This document shows positions 21,743 to 40,182 of a stretch of 64,000 nt of DNA, piece by piece. The notes under the pieces are model-generated. The model saw only the letters and a program-made list of their open reading frames with translations. It did no database searches and was not told the DNA's origin. A program made the position numbers and the translations under genes. The stretch's first letter is position 1. Each line of letters begins with the position of its first letter. This DNA is from Neospora caninum Liverpool (Eukaryota; Apicomplexa; Conoidasida; Eucoccidiorida; Sarcocystidae), in assembly GCF_000208865.1 (NCBI RefSeq), contig NC_018395.1, positions 5,132,839 to 5,196,838 on the forward strand. Reading direction: 5' to 3'.

Positions 21743-24456
21743 ATGGCGACGCTCCGGCGCAGCGTGACCTCTCTGTTGGCGACTCGTTCGCCTGTTTTCC
21801 CCTCTTCCGCGGTTTCTTTCTCTTCTTGCTCTTCCACTTCTCCGTCGTTCATCGCGTTGAGGCCACGATTCTCTCCAGGGGCAACTGGCGCACTGCACCC
21901 TCAGGCCGCGTCCGCAGAAACCGGGAACCGCTTATGCGGAGGCTTTCTGCAAGTTCGCACGGTCGTCAATGTACGTTTAATGGATTTGTTCGTCTAAGCT
22001 TACGCACACATGAAGGCGAGACGCTTCTACCCAGAAATTCGAAGAGAAACAACCTCGCGCTTCTTCTCTGCCTTCGTCGATCTAGCTTTACAAGCAGTCA
22101 CATGCCACGGAGCATCACGGTCCGAGATGCATTGGCACGCAAGGGCAATCGTACGTATATATACATGTCCACATGTATAAAGATAAAGATTTATAGTCCG
22201 GTGACATCGATATATCCTTTTTTACCAAAGGAGAGTTGGGGATGGGGAACATGCTGACGCGGTGTCTTTGGGACTGTTTTCAGCGAGTGAAGAAGGTGGA
22301 GGATTTCCAGAAAGTGACAGATTCTCACGAAGACACTGCGGTGAAGGTCGTACAGTTCTCCGCGTCCTGGTGCGGGCCTTGCCGCCAGGTGACTCCAACT
22401 GTAAGGCTTTTACGTCGTCATGCATGCGCAAATCAATTCGCAGAAAGTTTCAAGTGCCTGAATTACCTCGCTTCCCATCTTTGCTCTGCCTATGGGCGTG
22501 TGCGCTTGCGGGATCGCCTGCACATCGAGCGAAAACGCTTGTAGCGCCTCCCTAGGTGTCTACGCCGCTGCGATAGCTTGTCTGTGGACTGTGCACCGTC
22601 GCAGGAAAACCAAATCCGTACGTCGGAACTCGCGCATCCTAGATGCATGCGCCCCCACACACAGCGAGACGCACGAGCGTTCAGACACTTAAATATACAC
22701 CGACGTAGTCTTTTGGTATGATCGTTACTTGCAAAAACTGATGTCTGGCATCGCCGGGACGGTTGCTGGCCGTTTGCGAGTCGTCGCTCTGTGTACCACT
22801 TCAAGGCGCTTGAGAAGACCCGCGACAGCGGCATCGGTAAATGTCTCTACTTGTACACACCTTTGTATATACTTGGGAAGCGGTTCTGGTGGCAGTCTGT
22901 CACGAGATCGGTCATGTAACAGAAGCGTGTGATTATGCATCCATTCGGAAACCAGTATCAGTACACATACCTATATATATATATATGTAGATGGGGGTAT
23001 TTGTGTGTTGAAGGATGTGTTTGCTGCTTTTGGCCTTTGCAGATTGAGGGATGGAGCGAGAAAATGCCGTCAAACGAGGTTCAGTTCTTTCACGTGGATA
23101 TCGACGAGTGTCCAGGTGCGAAGGCGAGTTGAGGAAGAAGGGAGAAAACTTGCAGATTTGACAGAAAACGGGAGGCGATCAGGAGGCGAGAGAAACGTCA
23201 CAGACTCCGGGCGAAGGGAGGGAACCCCGAGAAGGTGGCGGTTGCAGAGAAAGAAAAACGTCGAGGATAAAGCGGAAGAGGGGGTGATGAACAAGGATAG
23301 CCGCAGTCACTCACAGTGGAGAACAAGAGGATGGGCCGAGACTGAAGAAGGAAGTCAGAGGTGGACCACACAGGTATCAGATGCGAGATTCAGGAACTCG
23401 ACGGGAGAGAAAGGGAAACCGGGGAAATCGAGAGAGGCACTTCGGGTGAAGCGCCTCCCCGCCATATGCAGCTTTGAAAGATCAGGGAGAAACGCGAGAC
23501 GGCGAAACCCCAGATGAAAAAGAAAGAATGCAAAATGATGAGAGGAAAAGGTACCGAGACCTCAGCGCAAACATGTACCTTTTCGTTCTGTCCCAGCCCC
23601 GTTGCCACGCCTCAGTCTGTGGTGTGGTTTTGGGCGCGTCGTCCTCATTTTTGACTCTTTCTGTCTTTGTTCTCTCTCTTTTCTGTTATTGTTACCGTGG
23701 CCACGCTCTACTCCGCTGTCCTTTCTCGCTTATGTTTCGCCTCCCGTCGTCGCCTCCTCCCTCCTCCTGTTCGTCGATTTCTGTATTTGAACGCGCTGCC
23801 CCGTTTCGTCGCCTCCCTGGCCTTCGATCGCTTTTTACCCACCGGCCTCCGCGCCTGTTCGCGCAGAACTCGCCGAGGAATACGATATCTCCAGCGTGCC
23901 CACGTTTCTCTTCTTCAAAAACGGGAAGAAAGTCAGCACAGTCCTGGGTAAGATCTCCTGGCATGTCCACAAACGAGTGCGACTTGCGATCGAAACAGAG
24001 CTAAAGGCTGTGTGCTCTTGTGTGCGGTGAAATCCGTTGTCTGAAAACTGGTGCATCTGGAACGATTTAACTTAATGGGCGTTCCACACACAACTCACCG
24101 GACCCAGGGTTTTCCTCGTTCTCGGTGTGCTCGAAACCGTGGCGAGAGCTCTAAATCCGCGTACGGGCTGCACTGTCGCGAGTGTCATCGCGTACACGAG
24201 GGAGTTTCTGTTAGGGAAACAAGAAATAACCGAGAGACCCAGACGGGACTGTTTCTCGGCCTTGCTTTTTTTCGTTTGACACACTTCTTTCTCGTTGAGG
24301 ATCCACGGATCCTCGTGTTTTTCCGAGGCGGCTCGGGCGTTGCTTCGCCCTTCGCACTCTCCCTCTTTCCCCGATCTAGCGTGGTCTTTTCGTTCGTTGC
24401 CTGCAGGCGGGAACACGGCGAAACTCGAGGAAGCAATCAAGGCATCTACGAACTGA
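21743..24456 (+). CDS. Thioredoxin with N-terminal organellar presequence
   Basis: Five exons, 21743-21970, 22284-22400, 23043-23115, 23867-23947 and 24407-24456, join in phase to 182 residues. The first exon encodes a 76-residue extension beginning MATLRRSVTSLLATRS, rich in Ser and Arg with almost no acids, which suggests import into the mitochondrion. The rest is a complete thioredoxin domain: VVQFSASWCGPCRQVTP with active-site cysteines 106 and 109, the strand FFHVDIDEC, the cis-proline in SSVPTF (Pro151), and FFKNGKKVSTVLGGN. Thioredoxins reduce disulfides in client proteins using electrons from thioredoxin reductase. The ATG at 21743 has A at -3. A plastid destination cannot be excluded, but there is no obvious signal peptide. 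The domain is certain; the compartment is inference. Confidence 0.93.
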
Positions 24457-27122: not shown

Positions 27123-30100
27123 ATGAATGGCGACTCAGAAGCCTCCTGGCGGACTGGCTGTTTCGGAAGTGGAGCCGTTGCTGCTCTCTCGAGCGCGCCA
27201 GAAGGAGAGAAAATTGTAAAGGAGGAAACTGCGTTCCTCCGCCTTGACAGGACACCCGAAACAGGCCTACAGCTCCGCACGCATCTGCAGGCGGCATGCG
27301 TGCCTCGCCTTGGCGCTGTAGACAGACGCAGAAGCAAAACCGTTTCTCGCTGCTCCTTCCTCTTCTTCCTCTTCATCGCTTGTCTCTCTCTCTTCGCACC
27401 GCGCAGTGCCATGCGGCCCCGGGGACCCAGGGCACGCATGCAGCTTCCGAGTTCCGCACCTCCCTCCAGTTCCCTCTCGTGCTCTCGTACAGCTGCCTTC
27501 CCAGCTAGACTCTCGGGGCTCTCGCTCCATTCAGATTTCAATGTCGCGGACTCCTTCTCTTCGCCTCTCCCGTCTTCTTCCTTTCCGGCTCCTGTCCGCT
27601 CTTCTCCCTGCTTAGCCGTCCTACACAACCTGATCGTCACACGGCCTTCGGAGGAGGCACTAGAGGGCGAGGAAGAGGAGGAAGGATGCCGAGCAAGGGC
27701 GTCTGGGGCGAAGAAACTCGAAGGTCAGCCGGAAGCCGAAGACCAAAATCTCTCTTTCGTGTCTTTCTGGCTTCGACGCCTGTCTCGGATCCTTCGCCCA
27801 TTTGCCTTCTCGCTGGGGGCTTCTCTTCTCTCTCGCCTCGCTAATCTCCCTTTCGACTTTAGCCGCTTTTCTCTCTCCGCATTGTCGCGAGAGCGCAAGC
27901 CATGCACTCGACCAGGAGACGAACCTCTGGCGGGCGACAGAAGCGTCCTCGACCGTCTCGCTTTCCCCACCTTTCTCCTGCGCGTTTCCGCGCTCGCCGT
28001 CCCCGCCGCGGTCTCCCAATCCCCCTCCGCTGTGACCCCGCTGTCGCCGGTCGGTCCAGTGGGGAAGGGTTCTGCGATCTCTGCGAAGCCGCATGTGTTC
28101 AGGACACAACCGTCTGCCTCGAGGCCGTCTCGAGCAGCGCTCTCTCAGCCTCTTCCTGCTTGCCGAGCGTCGTCTTGCTCCACGTTTTTGCGCTCTTCTT
28201 CCCGCTGTCCACCGCCTTCTGCGTCGTCGTTTCCGTCGTCTTCGCCGCCGCCTTCCCCGTTTGCTTCGGGATTACCTGCATCTTTGCCTTTCTCGCTCGC
28301 CCGTCTTTCTTCTCTCTCTTCGTCGCGGGCTGCCGCCGTTTCCCGAGGGGCGCGAAGCGACGGCCGTCGAGCATGCGGTCGCGTGGCCGGTTTGCTGTTT
28401 CCCGGTCGCATTCGCCGACGTGTCAACGGCGAAGCCTGGAAACAAAGCCTACATTCTCGGATCTTTCGTTCGGAGTTCCAGGGCGCGAGACGCCTTCCAC
28501 TCTGTCTCCTCGCAAGAGCGCGACCGACCCAAAATCGCCCGTGGCTTCGCGGTCGGACGAAGCAACTCGGCGCCGACACAAAACCGCGCGATCGGTCGTC
28601 TATGTTTCTGCGGTGCTCGGCGCGCCCTTTTTTCGTTTTTTCCGCGCCTGCCGTGTCGCGGTCGTCTTTTCGACTCTGTCGATACACCTCAGCGTCCTCG
28701 GCGCGGCCGCAGCTGCCGTCTCGCCTCGCTCCGAGTTCCTGTGCATTTCCCTCTTTCTCGTCGGCGTCCGGGAAGCTGCGGGATGGCCCGAGTGGCTCGG
28801 CGGAATCCTTCCAGCGAACCGAGGGAAGCATCGAAGCACACCCGCAGAGCGGCGGAAACTCGACCTCAAACGGGGGCAGTGAAAAACCAGCAACTCCGCG
28901 AGCACGCGCAGGAGCGCAAAACGCGAAACACGGTGAGGAACGCCCAGAGAGAGCAAGGAGAGGAGGAGGAGAAGAGCCAGAAGGAGTGAACGCGAGTGAC
29001 GGATCTTCGTCAGTGTCTGTGGGGTCGAGACGTCCTCCCGAGTGTGCAGAGAAGAGAGGAGAGGACGCGAGCATAGCAGATAGCAAGGAAGGCGCATCTG
29101 TCTCTGCGGTGTCTCCGGGGCCTTTGCGGCGTCAAACGCCATCGCCGGAGGAGCGACAGGAGACAGGGAAGGACGACAAAGAGACGAAGCGACAGCCGCT
29201 GCCGCCGTCACTTCGCATGTCAGCCAGAGAAATTGGAAGACGCTTTCGAAGAGCTGCGCTCCAGGAACAACACCGGGCGCATATCGCGAAAGCCTGCTTC
29301 CCAGTCGAAGCCGTTTTCCAACATCCCGACTTGCTGAACGGTCAGCGAAAGTTCCAGAATCCACAAACACGCAGGCACCGCACTTCCCCGACAAACTCCT
29401 CATATACATCTTTTCATCATCCTTTCACCTCACTGGTGTTATATATATATATGTATGTATATATATATATATATATATATATGTTTATGCAGGTATGTAT
29501 TTGTATATGTAGAGACAGAGAGGTATAGGGAATGGCGTGTTCAATACATCGAGGTCTCAGAGTGTGCCTCTGTTCCTGCGCACATTTATGTATATGCAAG
29601 GGATTTAAATCCGTTGTGTATTCGCGGGCCTCGAACTAGGTTTGCGTGGACTGATATGGTCCTCCGCTTTTGCACAACCCTGACAGTTCATTTATATCTT
29701 TTACGTGGTTCACCCTGTGCAGTTTTTAGATGCCGTTTGAGGTTCGGCATGTGTCGCGTGGGCGGCAGCGACAGCTGCGTCCTTTCGATCCCAGGCGGAG
29801 GACGTTCGATCTCCTCCCCCCAGAGTCCGTCAGACGCGTCACAACTCTCTTGCGCGCGTGCGAGGACGCATGCAAGGTCCGTTTCTCGTTTTTTGTCTGT
29901 CCCGGAGCAGGCCTTCCGTTCCGGCGTCTCGGTGGCCCGCCGCCGCCTCGGCCGGTTGGCGCCTCCGCGCCTGCCGCGCGTGGATGCGCTCGGCAGTTTG
30001 GGAAAGATTCGCAAAGCGCCGAAAGCGGGAAAGGCTCTGCCGATGCTGGAGTGAAGTCGGCAGAGCGGATACTAGGAGGCGAGGCCTGTCAGGGCGCGAA

Positions 30101-30574
30101 AGGCCTGCTTGTCAGCGGGTTGTGTTTGGGGACCAGCATGATGGGATCCCCGGCGATGATCGACGACGCCGACGCCATAGAACTGCTTCATTGTGCGTAC
30201 GGCGAGTACGGCATCAATTTCTTTGTGAGTATTTGTCAACGCGTCAAACCGCCTGTGACGCGTGTCGCAGTGTGAAGCTCTCAAAAAACTCGAGAGACTG
30301 GTCGTCTAGCCTGCTCGGTCGTTCTTTCAATGTATATGCAGGTGCACGTCACTGCAGCCGGCGGGTTTGGGGAAGATCTCTGCCTGTCCGTGTCTCTCGA
30401 GCTCGCTCTGTGTCTCCCTTCCTGCGTGCGTCCTTCGATTCGCGGCGATCCCTGGCGATTCCCCTAGACGTATTAAAGCCATGCATCTGTGCACATGTAT
30501 GCTGGTATGAATAAATGTGTGACTCGACACGTCTGCACAGGTATCCATGCATGAGTAAGGATATATCCATCAAT

Positions 30575-30610
<36 letters not shown>

Positions 30611-33600
30611 GTAGGAGCGCATAGCTGCACAACATATAAGTTGACAAATGTACCTGCACACATATGCTTCTTATGGGCACACGTAGAGGTATATTCAGAG
30701 GCGGCGAAGTAGGAACCTGTCGATAGTCACTTTGCCTATACTCGCTTTCATCGCAACCATGGCTTTCCCTTTCAGGATGTCGGCGAACTCGATCCGATTC
30801 CTTTCTCCCCGGCGACGCACGGCCGAGGCCACGTCGAAGTTCTTCGGCCCTTTCTGCGTGAGCACCAGGCGCGGGCTGCTAGCCAAACTGCGTGCGCCAC
30901 GGGGGCGTCTTCGGTCGAGTCGGAGATGCGTCAGATCCGGATTTCCGCGAGGATTCTAAGCGGCAGTTTATCCGGTTTCCGTGAGGAACGGGGCGCGCTG
31001 AAACGCGCGATGCGCGAGGCCGAAGAGCGCAGAGAGACCACAGGCGTCAGATGGGCTTGGGGCGAGCACGACCCTGACGAGATCGGCGGCGCGGGCGAAA
31101 GGCGCTCGCAAGAGGCGGACGAAATCTGGGGCAGAGAACGCGGCTGGTGGACCCGCAAAGATCGCCAGGAGCGACGCATGCAGAGGTACAACTCAGGCGA
31201 ACACTTCAAAGTGTGTCGGCAGTTCTCCACCACGTTTGGTCAGCCACACGGGTTCACCATCAACTGCTTGTTTCGACTGTGTATTGACTGTGTTATTGTA
31301 GCACCCAAGTGGTTGGCTCCATATCGGGGCGAGACAGATGGGGAGCACAGCACGGCGATATGCAGCCAGCGGTTCGGACTCGCGCGACACGCGCTGCGGA
31401 GTTCTTTTCTTCGATTCAGAGAAGGCCTGTCGGTCAACCCTCCACACATCGCGCCCGCCTCCGCTCACCTGGCGATTGTGTCTCGTGCTGCAACAACACT
31501 CAGACGTATCGATGCCTATATGACCAGAGGCGCCGTCAGATTTCCGCCACGGGCGTCTCTCGCGCTGTCGCTCGTTGTGTACCGCTTTCTCGTGTTGCTT
31601 CCTGCTTTCTTCACCTCCCGTTCTCTTTCCTGCTGTTTTCTCACCCCCCCCCCCGTCGGTTCTTCCCTCTCGCTTCAGAGACCACGTGGAAGAGGCAGTC
31701 GACAACTTGCTTCTGCGTCTGGGCGTGGACGCGATTGACCTTCTCCAGTTCGACGCCCCGCACCGATACGTGCCGCGCCACGAGTTGGGCGAGGACACCT
31801 ACTGCTGGGGGGTAAGCCAGCCGCGCGAAACGACAGAGGCAAAGAAACCGGGGGGCCGACGCACGTGCTTCGCGCAGGGAGAACGGCGACAAGGAAGCAG
31901 CAAAAGGAAAGAGGCACGCCGCGTCCGAGCCGTGGGGGCGGGGACCGTGACTGGTCTGGGCCCTCCTTCTTGCACGGCCCTGAACGGTTTCTTCGTTCTC
32001 CTTCGCGTTTTCGCTCTTGCCTATCACTGCAGTTGGAGCGCGAGGATGATGTGGCCATCGAGGAGCAACTCACCATCTTGCAGCATCTCGTCGACAAAGG
32101 GAAAGTAGGGAACCTGATGAGGCGTAGACTGTTTCGCGGCCTCGCTCTCTCTTCCGGAACGACCACAGCAGCGGGTGTGAAAAAGGACTCGAGGAAACCG
32201 GACGGACCTGCGCGTTTTTCTTGCCAGCCCACCTTTGAACCTTTGAGCAAACACAAAGGGGTGATGGGGCTCGTAAGACGCACGAGGCAAGTGCGAAGTC
32301 TCCGCCCCGTGAACGCGGCCTCGGAGATGAGGTTTGCCAGTCTCCGTCCATGTCGGGCATCGCGTGCACACTTGCCTTCACGCTCTTTTCGCTCTTCCCT
32401 CTCGGTTCGTGCATTTTGGCTGTCTTCTGCAGGTTCGCTATCTTGGCTTAAGTAACGAGACGCCGTGGGGCGTCTTCAAATGGTGTTCCGCAGCAGACCA
32501 AGTAAGCCGAGAACCGCTCTCCGTCTCTCCCATGCCCTCTCTCCCCTTTGCGTCGAAAACCCGGAAAACCAATTCACGCGTTGCCTCCCGCCTTCGCGCC
32601 TCGCTTTCCACTCCTCTCTCTCTCGGAGAACTGGGGGTCGGCGGGAACTCTCTGTCCGTCACAAAATGCAAGACGCGAGCCAACCGCCGGCGGTCACGTT
32701 TCGCCGGCGTCAGCCACGGTTTCAGTGTGCATCGCCGGCGCCTCGCTCTTGGCACGGGGCGCGTCCGTCTCACTCCTCGTCCTTTTGGCTGCGGCAGGAT
32801 TAAACCGCGACACAGGCCTCCGTTATCTCCTTCCGCGTCTCCAAAGCACACGCTGCCTTCGCTCCGTTCTGTCTGCGCGCTGCGCGATGTAGCCGGTTTT
32901 GCCGCGCGCACGCGCGCGCTCTGGGGGACTTGCGGATCCGCAGAAAGCTTCTCTGATTCTCATCGCTTACTTCCGGCCTCCCACGGCGCCGCAGGACCGC
33001 TAGAGGATCCAGTCCTCTCACGCGACTGACGCAAACTGTCTCGTGCGTTGCCGCAGATGGGGCTCTCGCGCGTTGCCAGTGTGCAGACACTCTACAACAT
33101 CATGCACCGCAACGAATTCGAATCTTCCGGTGAGCCCAACCGCCTCGCCGGTAGTACTATCAAGCCTCTTCTTTCAAATAGATTTCATGGAAAACCACCG
33201 ATGTGGAATAACCTTAATGTAGTAGGATATTGAAATCCAACACTTTTAGCTTTGCTCCGCGCTTCAGGTGCCGGGTTGCTCTACACCACCGTGCCGCGGA
33301 GTGCGGGGCGGAAGCGTCGCTTCGCTTTTTCCGAGAGTCGAGAGAGCTCCAGGGGCTGCCTGACGACGGCCACGCACCTGCGCGTGCGTCGAGTGCGGTT
33401 CCGTTTTTATGTCGGTTCTTCGCTGCATGCGCAGGCTTCCCGGAGATGCTGTGGAACATGAACGTTCCGCTCCTGGCGTACGGCGTTCTCGCTGGAGGCA
33501 TCTTGACGAGCAAATACCTCGACCCCGAACGGTAAGCAGTCTTGCCTCTCTTGTCGTTTCCGATTGCGCGCTGGTGAACGTTCCCTGTTTCTCCTTCTGC

Positions 33601-36258
33601 CTTTCCTGGTTTCTAGCTTCTACCTCTCCTACGTGCCCTAACGCCGCTGCCTTCGCTCGTCCTGTTCGTCTATTTTCGACTTCGCGTGCAGCCCTCTTTC
33701 CCGTCTGCTATCGTTTCTCCCTCTTGATCTCACTGGACACATCCACGCTTCTTCGGCTACCTGTGCGCTCTCACGCTCCAGGTGATCCTCGGTTTCTTCA
33801 AAACTCGTGTTCTCTCCCCTTCTCTGTTTTTTTAACTGCGTTCTCTCTCTCGCTCCTCTCCGCTTCTCTGTTTTTTTTCAGTTGCGTGCTCTCTCTCTCC
33901 TCTCCCCCTCTCTGGTTTTTTCTCTCTCTCTTTCTGGCCCTCTTTCTCTGTCGCTTTGTCTTCTCGTTCTTTGTGGAGTTGCCGACCCAAAAAGTGCGAG
34001 GAGAGTGGCTCAAGTTGTCCGCTCTCTCTCTGTCCGCGCCCCAGGTTCAATCCGCGGGGGCCTGACGAGCGTCTCGGGCAAGACGAATGGGACAACGCAG
34101 TTGCGACCTACCGAACGCAGTTGCCTGAAGACTCGGGCTACCTGTCGTACGGGCCTGCAAACGGACGCTGCAACAAGTGGAAAGAAACCTATTTGACGCA
34201 CCGATCTGTCTGGGGCCAGTGGCTGACCGGCGAACTCGTCAAGGCGGCTCGACAGTTCGGCCTCACGGCCACGCAACTCGCGCTCAGCTGGGTGTACACC
34301 CGGCCTTTCGTAAGCACGGCATGTGGTCACGACTTCCGGGGGAAAGAAAAGGAAGAATTGGACGAGACGGAAGAAGAAAACGCAGAAGAAACCGATACGG
34401 TGTTTGGCTGCTGGCTGTCTTTTTTGAGGCACAGAGACTCCGTGCGGGGGGGGAGATGTACACCGCGGGGGCGAGCAATCGGGGGAGGGAACGGAAGAGA
34501 GACAGGTGGAGACACAGTGGGCGAGATGGTTGAGGCGAGTGGAAAAGGAGGAAGGAAAAAGCGGAAACCAGAGGGAAGGAGGGAAGGAAGGGAAAACCCG
34601 GGAACGAGTGAGCAGGCAGGAGGACGGTGACGACAACAGAAAGCTGAAAAGGGAAGAATGACTCGACAGCGGAGACGCCAGGACAGATTGACGAATGAAA
34701 AGCCCCGTACCTCTGCGCAAAACTCGTTCGTGCTCGCTTCGTCTTTTCAGCTCGGAAGTGCGATCATTGGACCTCGAACGATCGGCCAACTCCGGTACGA
34801 GAAATGGGAACACTGGTCGGCTCTCCTTTGGCCCTTTCTTTGTGTTCGGTCTGGGTTTCGCTCTTCCTCGTCGGATTCCTCCTGGCGAGCTCGCGCTCCG
34901 TTTATTCTCTTCCGTTTCCGTCGTTGTGCACGGCCTCTCTGTCGAGGTCGAGCAGCAGAGCCCACTGAAACTGAAAGAGCAGTCAGGAGACGAACACGAA
35001 ACGCGCGCGCGTCGTGGCAACTGAATTCCCGCAAATAAACAGACGACGCAGGAAACGGGATAGTCCTTTTCAACCAAAACGCAAATGGAGATGCGCACTG
35101 GACCCCCACGGAACGACTGAGCGTCAGACTCTTCGGTCTTTTCTAACTCGGAACAAAATCGACGGCCGGCTCTCTCGCCCCGCATATCCTGTGTGTATGG
35201 GAACGGTGTGCCTTTCCTTCGACACCACACGCGTTCGGGTAACCACATGTGGGCATGACCAGCCGATTCTGCGTTCTGTCCACGGGACTGCAGTTTCCGT
35301 CTTTGTCGTCTTCTGCTGCCTGCTCCTCAGAGACGCCGTTCGCGCCTTGAACTATCCCCTGCCACCGGCGCTGGAGAACGATCTCCACGAGCTCTTCCTC
35401 AGGTTTCGCGCGCCGACGATGGGCGGCCCGCAAGTGGGGACGGTCTTGGAAGATCTCGACCACGGCCAGCTCATCTCGCAGTCCGAATTCATGAAATGGG
35501 GGCGGCAGCCCATCTGGAGCGGGGGCAGATACTGGCCGAATTGGGTGAGGACTGGGACGCATGCAGAGGTAGAGTCCAGGCGAGGGTTTTCCTCCGAGAG
35601 GAAAGCGTTTCGCCAGCCAAGTCGGCCCGAGGCCGCTTTTTCGAAGCTACGCGCAGGGAAACGGGGGAGGGTGCTCGAGAAGCGGCCGGCGATTTAGAGC
35701 CGTCGTCGTCTCTCACGAGAGGTAGACAGCAGCTTCTCGCCTTTCTCCTTCCAAGACGGTTCTCTGTTGTCGTGGTCGATGTGTGCATGCAGTGGCGGGT
35801 TTATTGGGACCGTATATCTGGGCACATTCGGAACGTTTTTTTGTTTTGTCTTGCCGCGTGCCTTTGTCGCCGCAGCCGCAGCCTCTCGTGGCCGAGAAGG
35901 TAGACTATCTGCGCAAACGCGAAGAGCTGGTAAGACTTCACTTTCTGTCTCCGCTGGATTTTTTCCAGCTGGGGAGATTGGGGGTGCGCTGTCTAGACAC
36001 TGCGTCGTGGCGGCCGCTTCCCGTCCCACGTTTCCTGCTCCGCCGGCTCTGAAGTCTCACGGACTCGCCATTCCAGAGAGCTTTCGGCACACGCTTCCCC
36101 GCGGCAGTTGGAATTCATTTCGCAATCTCACTTTTTTTTTCTGGCTCTGTCGTTTGGTCCTGTTCTGTAACCCCAATACACTACCAGAAGTACATCTCCA
36201 AATGCGTATGGATCCATGTATATTATTCATATATATTTATATAGTGACACACGTACTC

Positions 36259-36298
<40 letters not shown>

Positions 36299-39200
36299 GA
36301 ACCTAGACTTGTGTGCATATCTCTATCATTATTGGGGTGTCTGCTGTTTGCGATATCCGTCTCGTCTGGCTTTTTACGCCTGCCTTGTCCTGAACTGAGT
36401 CTCGGTTCGCGCCGCCGGTCTGATGCCGCCTGGAAGCGTCCGGAGTTTCTTGAAACTCTCTGTTTCCGCAGATCGAAGTTCGCGCTGCGGCGGCCGACAC
36501 GGATGACCCTTCCGATGATGGCGCCTTCAACGTGCGAATGTGGAAAGAAATGCTGGAAGATCGGAGGCCAGGTAAAAGACAAAAGTCAAAGAAAGTTGTC
36601 TCCGCAGTTCTACCTGAAAGGCAATCCCTGCGGAGCTTGTGTCTAGATGTTCTCGAGAAATTCGCGGACACCGTGTAGAGGACTGTGTGTTGCAGACGCT
36701 TCGGATCGTCTCGCGTGGGGCGATGCGGAGTGGCAACTTGGCGCGTCTGCCGCATCGGCCGCACCTTTTACTATCCACGAGAGTCGAGTGGAAGTTGATC
36801 GGCAACCGCTTTTGTTCCCCTTTGAGCGCGGGCTGATGCATGCGAGCCGTGCGGAGTCCACATTGTACATACACCCCTATCCGCATCGCATGTCGCAGCC
36901 GCCTCTGCGTGCCCGTGTCTCACGTTCGCTGTCTAGAAAAAGAGAAAGAAGAGCCCGCATGTGATCGCATGTTGAAGGCCTTGCCGCATCGATGAAATGT
37001 CCTTTATTCCTTGACACACTTGCTGACATCCAGACCTAGGAGCCCCCATGTAAAGTCGGGGCCCTCGTTCTGCCTCCCCTCTCTCTCCTTGCTGTGCGTT
37101 TCACAAGTCTCGCTCATGGCAGGAACCAGACGCTCATTTCAAGATATGTGTGCGCATTCTAACTGCAGCCGCATATGCATCGAAATCAATATGCACATAT
37201 ACATCGATACGACGCTGCACATGCATGCACACGCGTATATATATACGCCTGTGTAGCTATGAGCCTGGTCATCTCTCTACATATATATATATATACAGAG
37301 AGGCATAACGAGAAAGGAAAGCGTACGGGGGGAGGCATGGGTAAAGCGTGAATGTGGATATGTTCACCTTGCGATATGCGGCGTTCTGTGCGTTGTGTGT
37401 GGTTTTAGGGGAGTATTTTGCGGTGAAGGAGCAGAAGTTGTTTGGCTGGGACGAGAAGAAGTTCGCTGACATGGACTGGAAAAACTTGACGAGGCATGAG
37501 CGAGAGAGCCAAGACCACTCCGACTTCCATTTTGTGTGGCGAGGCGACAAGGTGCGGGCCGCATGCATGCCAATGAAATTACAGAATCCGAAGGCGGAAA
37601 GGAGACACAGACGGCACGTTCCATGAATATGTGTGTAGATCATGTACTCTCACCAGGCCCCGCCGCTTGCATGTATATAGTTATGTATATAGAGCCACAG
37701 CACGAGTCAGGGATGCGGAGAGGTACATACATGGGATAGAACATCCGGTGCATATATAGAGTTACACTTGTATACATACAGAGATTATAGATGGAGAGAG
37801 TGATAGGGATGAGATCGAGAGACCGGTAGATAGATTAACATTCCCTCTTGCGTTTCACATTTCCATCTTCGTATATGTATATATCTGTGGATATGTTTTG
37901 GGTTTACTGCAGGTCAATGCCGTTATCTATTTGATCACGTTTCGTGTTTGCGACGCTCATATCGTCTCCGCCTTTTGCCTCTCCCTTATTGTCGAGAGGT
38001 TTCTTCTGGCTTTTCTGTCACCTCGTCCTGTCGCAGTTCCGTGTTTTTGTGTCCTCGCTCCTGAAACCCGGCCACATGAACATCGCGTTACCGCTTCGCT
38101 TCCGTGTCTCCTTGCCTCTCTTTCCCTCGCTTTTTCCGCAAAGGCATCTTACCGTTATTTTCGTCCTGCCGTCCTTGCCGCCTCTAATCACTCACCGTTG
38201 TCGGCGTTTCTCTGTCCCTCTTCTTGTCTGATAAATAGATTTACCGCGAGAACACGACGGAGGCGATGCGCAACTTCTACCGGAACAAAAAGGCGATTTG
38301 CGACGTTATGCACAGGTCCGACGCCTCTCTTTTCTGCCTTCCACTCTGTGCTCCGTTGTCTCTCCCCGTATTCGCACTTCTACATTTTTTTGGCATTCGA
38401 GAGCCTCATGCATTCACGGTGTCTTTTCTTTCGAGATCTCGGCGTTATTCTTGGTGCCTAAGAGACAGATTGCATGCGCTGCCTTCCCCGCCCACCTCGA
38501 GTTGTGTCATCGTCTGCCACAGCACATATGCAGTTATTAGTGTGTTTTCTGTGCGTATACCCACACAAAAATATTTGCGTATTCATGCATATATATATAT
38601 GTAGATATATCGAAGCATGCATTGAAATGATTGGACAAGGGTGTACCAGAGATGGGGTCTCAGAATCTGTGCGTTGTGCTCTTGTGTCTGTTGTTTGCAG
38701 AAACATCATGCAGTTTCAAGATATATACAGTAACATGGAACGAGTTAGTCCAATGCCTTACCTCGTTCGTGTCCTGTTCATCTGGAGACAGTCGAAAAGA
38801 GCGTTTCGCTCTGTTTTCGCCTCGTCTCCCCAAACCAAAGCTCAGATCCCTTCCCCCCCTTCCCCTTGGCCATTTCCCGAAGGCGTCACTTACATCGCAT
38901 TCACACGCTTTTCCATAATCATGTTCATACAGATATATAAGCTTTTTTATGTTGATAGAAACATAGATAGGTAGATCGACGCGCATAGTTATTTATATTA
39001 ATACATATATATATATATATATATACATGTATCAAGATATAGCGGTGCCCGTAGTTTGATGGATAACGCGATCGTACAGCCATACCTTTCCTCGTTTGCG
39101 CAGAGGTGATTCTTTTGAGTCAGTTGCATGATTAACGCACCAGTCACACATCGATCCATCGCGGCAGGGAAGCGTACCCCGTCAAGCGGAAGGCCGTAAA

Positions 39201-39468
39201 GTGTTTTCTCTTACTTCCTGAACGTTTTTTCTCTGACAGCCTGGGCGAAGCAATGGATTCATACAATTAACGGTCACAGACGCTTTGCTTCCGTCATTAA
39301 CATATGAGAATGATTTTAATGCAAGACATCTCAGGCAAAAGAACTTAATCTAGAGGAGGACCGAAGGCGAATTTCCTGATGGTGAAGCTCGTTATATACC
39401 AATGCATATAACTATCGATCTACGAAGATGTCCATCAGTCCCTGCATGCATTCGTTTGTGCGGTCGCA

Positions 39469-39510
<42 letters not shown>

Positions 39511-39903
39511 CTGTCAGTGCCTGTGTCGATATTTCGTTAGGCACAAAATGCGCAGGAGAAAACTGTTAACGGAGTGTTTGTGCTCTTTCTTTTTCAGACT
39601 CCGGGATTGTGGTGCAGCATGTGGAATGAGTGGGACTACGATCTGATCGACAAGCGGCTGAGAGAGCGACACGGCATCGACATCCTCGATAAAAAGGTGT
39701 GAAGGCAAAGATACCGAAACGGCGCAATCGTGCGAAACACACCGAAATCCACCAGAGCACGCGAAATGCCACAGCAGTGGCAAATGCACACATACACATC
39801 TTACAGGGCTATACACTATATATATGTATGTATGCATGTATGTATGTATTTACGTATGTATGTATATGACCCCCTTCGTCCATGAATCTCCAGCCTTACA
39901 CAA

Positions 39904-39943
<40 letters not shown>

Positions 39944-40182
39944 ATAGATAGAAACCTTGATCCGGAACTGGGTGTACGCAGGGGAGATGGAAATGTTTGA
40001 ACGTGTTTTCTGTATGCTTTTCTCAGGTTTGGAAGCTCGTGGGGGATATTCCAGATAAGGAGCGGAGAAGACGGCTCGAATTCACAGAGCCGTTTTGGTA
40101 CTGGGAAGACGGCGGGCAGCCCGACATGCCGTGGGAACATGCGACAGGCGAAGATGTGACGGATGGAGGGACACAGCCGTAG
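27123..40182 (+). CDS. Tas-like aldo/keto reductase-fold protein, catalytic residues apparently lost, Trp-rich tail
   Basis: After a long N-terminal frame (27123 to about 29340; first junction unresolved) and 29730-30224, exons join in phase: 30776-31185, 31679-31811, 32033-32104, 32433-32501, 33057-33129, 33435-33531, 34045-34309, 34751-34794, 35331-35544, 35876-35929, 36472-36571, 37409-37551, 38239-38315, 38701-38743, 39598-39696, 40027-40182. The core follows E. coli Tas closely: [67 protein letters not shown]. The fold is therefore an NADPH-type TIM barrel. Of the catalytic Asp-Tyr-Lys-His set only Asp remains; Tyr, Lys and His positions read Asp, Arg and Asp. An in-frame ATG at 28602 starts a mitochondrial-like presequence ([20 protein letters not shown]). 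The ATG at 27123 has the better context. The last five exons could be a separate gene. Fold is sure; role unknown. Confidence 0.75.
37360..40182 (+). other. Alternative model: tail exons as a separate small membrane protein gene
   Basis: If translation starts at the ATG at 37360, the five last exons alone encode 188 residues. They begin with a hydrophobic helix ([17 protein letters not shown]), then a charged, Trp-rich soluble part ([48 protein letters not shown]). In that case the reductase-fold gene would run past its donor at 36571 and stop at 36678. Against this, the bases encoding the helix are a T/G-rich tract ending in TTTTAG, much like the tract before the 38701 exon, and the 36571-37409 junction keeps phase. 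I slightly favour one fused gene. No family is recognised. Confidence 0.4.
39472..39507. repeat. (TA)n microsatellite in the reductase-fold tail region
   Basis: About 17 TA units lie in an intron. Others in the same gene lie at 29440-29482, 30577-30607, 36261-36294, 39003-39025 and 39906-39941. None falls inside an exon of the model. Confidence 0.9.

What the first reader, a model, noticed from the sequence alone, without database searches (positions are those of the whole stretch)
30776..31760. Aldo/keto reductase that seems to be a pseudoenzyme
The core follows E. coli Tas closely, so the catalytic positions can be read off. Asp is kept in INFFD. The catalytic Tyr (AEMYP in Tas) reads Asp in DVGELDP, codon 30791-30793. 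The Lys (ASKV) reads Arg in SARIL, codon 30950-30952. The His (QVHWP) reads Asp in QFDAP, codon 31752-31754. Loss of Tyr, Lys and His together should abolish hydride-transfer catalysis, while the barrel and much of the cofactor side look intact. A conserved dead reductase suggests a structural or regulatory role, for example as a subunit of an organellar complex.
Basis: partly seen in the sequence, partly recalled or inferred. Interest (0 to 1): 0.85.

Follow-up and report, generated by a model that had tools for sequence, protein, structure and literature searches.

The report
Conserved dead aldo-keto reductase of apicomplexans
A parasite gene built like a carbonyl-reducing enzyme has had its catalytic centre replaced in the same way in all the close relatives examined, and seems to have been kept for another job, perhaps in the parasite's relict plastid.

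The parts
27123..29340 (+). First exon (5' part inferred): long N-terminal extension; public model P0001 starts only at 29217
   Evidence: Open in frame to 29340, first ATG 27123. Toxoplasma, Hammondia and Besnoitia orthologs have a long extension; tblastn-aligned part starts at 29148 (Toxoplasma, Hammondia) or 28599 (Besnoitia). Start is inferred.
27351..27395 (+). Hydrophobic stretch from residue 77, possible recessed signal peptide
   Evidence: T. gondii P0051 and Hammondia P0050 have one from residue 77 too, Besnoitia from residue 10
29911..30224 (+). Barrel exon with the LGTS motif and INFF
30776..31185 (+). Exon with the catalytic Asp (30776), Asp in place of Tyr (30791-30793) and Arg in place of Lys (30950-30952); holds a stretch absent from the haemosporidian and piroplasm rows
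31679..31811 (+). Exon with Asp in place of His (31752-31754)
32033..32104 (+). Barrel exon
32433..32501 (+). Barrel exon, GLSNE motif (Ser-Asn kept)
33057..33129 (+). Barrel exon, conserved Gln
33435..33531 (+). Barrel exon, LAYG..GG.LT.KY motif
34045..34309 (+). Barrel exon with a loop conserved in the dead clade
34751..34794 (+). Barrel exon, IGPRTIGQL (adenosine side)
35331..35544 (+). End of barrel and start of the C-terminal tail
35876..35929 (+). C-terminal tail exon
36472..36571 (+). C-terminal tail exon
37409..37551 (+). C-terminal tail exon with the GEYFAVKE motif
38239..38315 (+). C-terminal tail exon missing from public model P0001
38701..38743 (+). C-terminal tail exon missing from public model P0001
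39598..39696 (+). C-terminal tail exon
40027..40182 (+). Last exon and stop codon

Best explanation
It is an ancient, conserved pseudoenzyme. In an ancestor of the sampled apicomplexans a Tas-type aldo-keto reductase came to exist in two copies. One kept its active site in most lineages. The other exchanged Tyr for Asp and Lys for Arg, lost His, carries a C-terminal tail, and was then held about as tightly as its sister. Most likely it no longer transfers hydride, still binds NADP(H) in the barrel, and uses barrel and tail as a scaffold or cofactor-state sensor, probably in the apicoplast. Shown by computation: the residues, their conservation, the predicted fold, the two clades, the tail. Inferred: order of events, loss of activity, cofactor binding, location, role.
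Against: No assay, imaging or RNA data were seen. Fixed Asp and Arg could mean new chemistry rather than none. The adenosine-side Asn is Ser, Thr, Ala or Cys in 35 of 36 (one gap), so NADP(H) affinity may differ. Distances are larger in the dead clade in 4 of 7 pairs. In T. gondii, Hammondia and this gene the hydrophobic stretch lies 76 residues in, unlike a textbook signal peptide, and 8 of 36 rows lack it near the start. In the piroplasm rows the stretch after it is often not acid-poor (P0028: 8 basic, 12 acidic). The live B. microti paralog was seen in the cytoplasm (PMC5641555). The dead-plus-live pairing is weakly supported (92/64).
Confidence: 0.58

Rival explanations
1. Prozyme-like partner: the dead protein forms a mixed complex with the live Tas-like paralog and controls it.
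For: Both forms were recovered in Plasmodium, Babesia, Theileria, Eimeria and Cardiosporidium and in N. caninum, whose live copy lies on contig C2:508768-516702, minus strand, with Asp, Tyr, Lys and His in place. P0028 and P0039 are on contigs of the same length, 3133627, probably one contig. Both clades often have leaders.
Against: In T. annulata, T. parva and T. orientalis the second copy has lost Lys and His, so no active partner there. For Toxoplasma, Hammondia, Besnoitia, Cyclospora and Hepatocystis only the dead form, and for B. microti and Chromera only the live form, was recovered; the searches were limited by length and shared words. Co-occurrence is no contact.
Confidence: 0.2
2. A new active site: the fixed Asp and Arg, with the kept Asp, carry out another reaction.
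For: Asp152 and Arg205 are in 36 of 36, as strict as the residues they replaced, while the His position varies.
Against: Nothing in the calls shows activity, and I recall no aldo-keto reductase with this set. A pair that only stabilises the barrel would be as invariant.
Confidence: 0.12
3. Structural subunit of a mitochondrial or other large complex.
For: The Toxoplasma mitoribosome does contain repurposed proteins (PMC11652630, passages). The tail could be a docking part.
Against: The mitoribosome and complexome papers do not mention an aldo-keto reductase in the main text (supplements not readable). No near-identical PDB chain. Leaders look secretory.
Confidence: 0.15
4. Artefact of exon choice: other exon borders would restore the tetrad.
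For: The kept Asp opens an exon (30776), close to the replaced Tyr.
Against: Joined exons equal the public protein; the other 35 group rows give Asp and Arg at the same places; the flanks align to Tas around the Tyr and His positions.
Confidence: 0.02

Closest known systems
E. coli Tas (NADP(H)-dependent aldo-keto reductase, PDB 1lqa; NCBIfam PRK10625)
   Same: Whole barrel; best hit by sequence and by fold; catalytic Asp and most cofactor-side residues looked at
   Different: Tyr, Lys and His replaced; 119.5 bits against a cut-off of 415; long leader and C-terminal tail added
Apicomplexan live Tas-like paralog, including Babesia microti BmAKR (714 aa; PMC5641555, abstract and Results read)
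   Same: Probable sister clade (92/64), leader, related barrel; P0079 is a 714-aa B. microti protein, taken to be BmAKR
   Different: Active site complete in 29 of 34; tail motif in 0 of 34
Kv beta (AKR6) potassium channel subunits
   Different: The two rows here keep Asp, Tyr and Lys and have Asn for His
Plant-type Tas-like proteins
   Same: Land-plant rows (Catharanthus, Juglans, Wolffia) and unnamed rows group with the two apicomplexan clades at 94/91
   Different: Active site complete in the 12 rows used, 5 of them named; the green algae Bryopsis and Pedinophyceae fall outside that group
Pseudoenzymes with live sisters, such as trypanosomatid prozymes (seen in a listing and in passages)
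   Same: Conserved dead paralog beside an active one
   Different: Unrelated enzymes; control of a partner is not shown here

Membership tests
Aldo/keto reductase fold family (PF00248) | Profile match above curated cut-off | tested here: met
   146.2 bits against 24; 18 of 18 members of A4 match at E up to 0.1
Aldo/keto reductase fold family (PF00248) | Complete barrel | tested here: met
Active aldo-keto reductases | Catalytic Asp-Tyr-Lys-His | tested here: not met
   only Asp kept
Active aldo-keto reductases | NADPH-dependent carbonyl reduction | not testable with these tools
   needs protein
Active aldo-keto reductases | NADP(H) pocket residues | tested here: inconclusive
   most kept, adenosine-side Asn changed; binding not measured
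NCBIfam PRK10625 (Tas equivalog) | Score above curated cut-off | tested here: not met
   119.5 against 415
Conserved pseudoenzyme | Catalytic residues lost in orthologs while the protein stays under constraint | tested here: met
   36 of 36; distances like those of the live clade in 7 pairs
Apicoplast protein | Signal peptide plus basic transit peptide | tested here: inconclusive
   28 of 36 by a crude hydrophobicity cut; basic over acidic after it in named Plasmodium rows with a signal, unclear in piroplasms; no trained predictor, no imaging
Mitochondrial complex subunit | Present in a purified complex | tested here: inconclusive
   not mentioned in three main texts, no PDB chain

The most novel reading that the evidence does not exclude
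The apicoplast keeps a dedicated NADP(H) sensor made from a dead Tas reductase: the fixed Asp-Arg pair locks the pocket in place of catalysis, and the orphan C-terminal tail passes the cofactor state to a partner, in many species perhaps the live Tas-like sister.
Probability: 0.22. Interest if true: 0.8.

Novelty: new variant of a known kind. Interest (0 to 1): 0.55.

Why it matters
I know of few described pseudoenzymes in the aldo-keto reductase family (recalled), and this one is kept in coccidia, malaria parasites and piroplasms. Several public records of Plasmodium and piroplasm orthologs are named 'aldo-keto reductase, putative', which is probably misleading for metabolic models and enzyme assays. 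If it is an apicoplast NADP(H)-binding regulator, it gives a handle on how the relict plastid senses redox state, testable with ordinary tagging and depletion.

Tried and rejected
Rejected: splice artefact; simple decay (fixed replacements, constraint like the sister clade). Not favoured: mitoribosome or respiratory-chain subunit (supplements could not be read).

C-terminal tail: no Pfam family at E up to 5 and a single PDB sequence hit at 0.24, taken as chance, with the Cardiosporidium piece. In the B. bovis model blocks 661-810 have pLDDT 83-93; in the N. caninum model, which lacks two exons, the tail is mostly poor. The fold searches were filled by the barrel, so the tail's fold is untested, not shown to be new.

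Literature: ten counted searches; no paper on this protein found. PF3D7_1409100, called aldo-keto reductase, is named in one paper (PMC8782505, one passage); that it is the dead ortholog is a guess. The apicoplast proteome paper PMC6155542, the screen PMC3228799 and the hyperLOPIT atlas PMC7670262 do not mention an aldo-keto reductase in the main text (word finds only).

Not found among hits: a Cryptosporidium, gregarine or Vitrella member.

Full report
What is there. The finding lies in a large, intron-rich gene on the + strand. A public Neospora caninum protein (P0001, 788 aa) is identical to the product of the exons joined from 29217 to 40182, so the window is N. caninum; the held assembly has 57.5 Mb in 14 contigs and the window lies on contig C10. 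With the N-terminal extension shown by the Toxoplasma, Hammondia and Besnoitia orthologs (1453-1535 aa) and two exons that the public model skips, the frame is open over 18 exons, 27123-40182, 1526 aa. The start is inferred. In the held assembly P0001 matches its own exons (14 places) and, weakly, the paralog on contig C2 (2.9e-7), nothing else at 1e-5 among the candidates scored.

Is it conserved? I placed 37 proteins in the ortholog group (P0001-P0033, P0049-P0052); 36 cover the active site, P0033 being a C-terminal part. All 36, P0001 included, have Asp for Tyr and Arg for Lys; the His position holds D 18, V 12, T 4, A 1, S 1. Three rows (P0008, P0014, P0016) are unnamed, Plasmodium-like by sequence. 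Of 24 chosen plant-type and bacterial-type rows all keep Tyr, Lys and His. Of all 38 rows outside the two apicomplexan groups, 34 keep the three, two have gaps there (P0103, P0105) and two Kv beta rows have Asn for His. So loss of His alone would not prove inactivity; Tyr and Lys together matter (family knowledge, recalled).

A confined change. Scanning 322 barrel columns, the only ones fixed in the 36 dead rows with another residue in at least 90% of 51 intact rows are Y152D, W172F and K205R. Of 44 columns conserved in at least 95% of the intact rows, 28 are kept in the dead clade (90% or more) and five are lost (under 10%): Met117, Tyr152, Lys205, His308, Trp309. The intact set left out live rows P0035, P0037, P0073, P0077, P0078 and P0082, some of them degenerate, and row P0046. 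Cofactor-side positions are mostly kept, but the adenosine-side Asn is not, and Arg stands in 33 of 36 where the others have Ser, Thr or Asn.

Relatives. A search with a Cardiosporidium protein found a second apicomplexan Tas-like group. With rows it has 34 members: Tyr in 34, Lys in 29, His in 30; 29 have the full set. Three Theileria rows have Arg and Ser for Lys and His; P0077 has a gap; the Chromera row has Gly and Gln, perhaps a model error. N. caninum has this paralog with the set complete. In a tree of 62 of the 109 proteins the 16 dead rows form one clade at 100/100 with a long stem (0.77), the 17 live rows one at 100/99, the two together at 92/64; two unnamed rows join at 95/96, then land plants and further unnamed rows at 94/91; four more plant-type rows, among them the green algae Bryopsis and Pedinophyceae, fall outside. 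Matched distances dead/live: 1.49/1.31, 1.59/1.46, 1.5/1.1, 0.99/0.99, 0.15/0.11, 0.44/0.54, 0.49/0.70, the last with a degenerate live row. Constraint is thus of like size, weaker in 4 of 7 pairs. That is not what a decaying gene looks like.

Extra parts. All 18 rows of alignment A4 continue well past the barrel with many invariant positions; a tail motif is present in 35 of 37 group members (not P0027, P0032) and in 0 of 34 live rows. In the B. bovis model the tail is well predicted (blocks 661-810 at 83-93), in the N. caninum model poorly. It has no Pfam match and no useful PDB sequence match; its fold was not searched on its own. At the N-terminus, 28 of 36 dead and 27 of 34 live rows have an 11-residue stretch of mean hydropathy 1.9 or more beginning in the first 30 residues, against 0 of 8 bacterial-type rows; the cut was set after seeing the values. 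In the named Plasmodium rows that have it, the next 60 residues hold 13-19 basic and 1-5 acidic residues; in piroplasms the balance is less clear. That is like an apicoplast leader (recalled), but the test is crude, and in T. gondii, Hammondia and this gene the stretch begins at residue 77.

How it may work. The best reading is a barrel that no longer does hydride transfer but still holds NADP(H), with a conserved tail as docking part: a scaffold or redox-state sensor, probably in the apicoplast. A prozyme-like pairing with the live paralog is attractive because both forms were recovered in six genera (Neospora, Eimeria, Plasmodium, Babesia, Theileria, Cardiosporidium); but only the dead form was recovered for Toxoplasma, Hammondia, Besnoitia, Cyclospora and Hepatocystis, only the live one for Chromera and B. 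microti, and three Theileria species have lost Lys and His in the second copy as well. New chemistry by the fixed Asp and Arg cannot be excluded. A mitochondrial complex is less likely on present evidence.

Known or not. The live B. microti paralog was probably the one cloned as BmAKR (714 aa, predicted signal peptide, seen in the cytoplasm; PMC5641555, abstract and Results). That cytoplasmic picture is a caution for the apicoplast idea. No paper on the dead protein turned up in ten searches. I rate it a new variant of a known kind.

Noticed in passing
window 38239-38315 and 38701-38743: Two exons of the C-terminal tail that public N. caninum model P0001 leaves out; T. gondii, Hammondia and Besnoitia models have them.
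   Followed up: yes
window 23896-23916 and around: A thioredoxin-like stretch on the + strand (VPTFLFFKNGK, recognised from memory), upstream of this gene.
   Followed up: no
proteins P0035, P0037, P0078 (Theileria annulata, T. parva, T. orientalis): The second Tas-like paralog has lost Lys and His but kept Tyr in these Theileria, apparently a separate degeneration; the T. equi row P0074 keeps the full set.
   Followed up: partly
N. caninum contig C2:508768-516702, minus strand (L001-L008): Live Tas-like paralog of the same genome, with its own N-terminal extension shared with Cardiosporidium and Eimeria rows.
   Followed up: partly
window 34013-35326, minus strand: A 438-codon open frame antisense to barrel exons; no evidence that it is a gene.
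   Followed up: no
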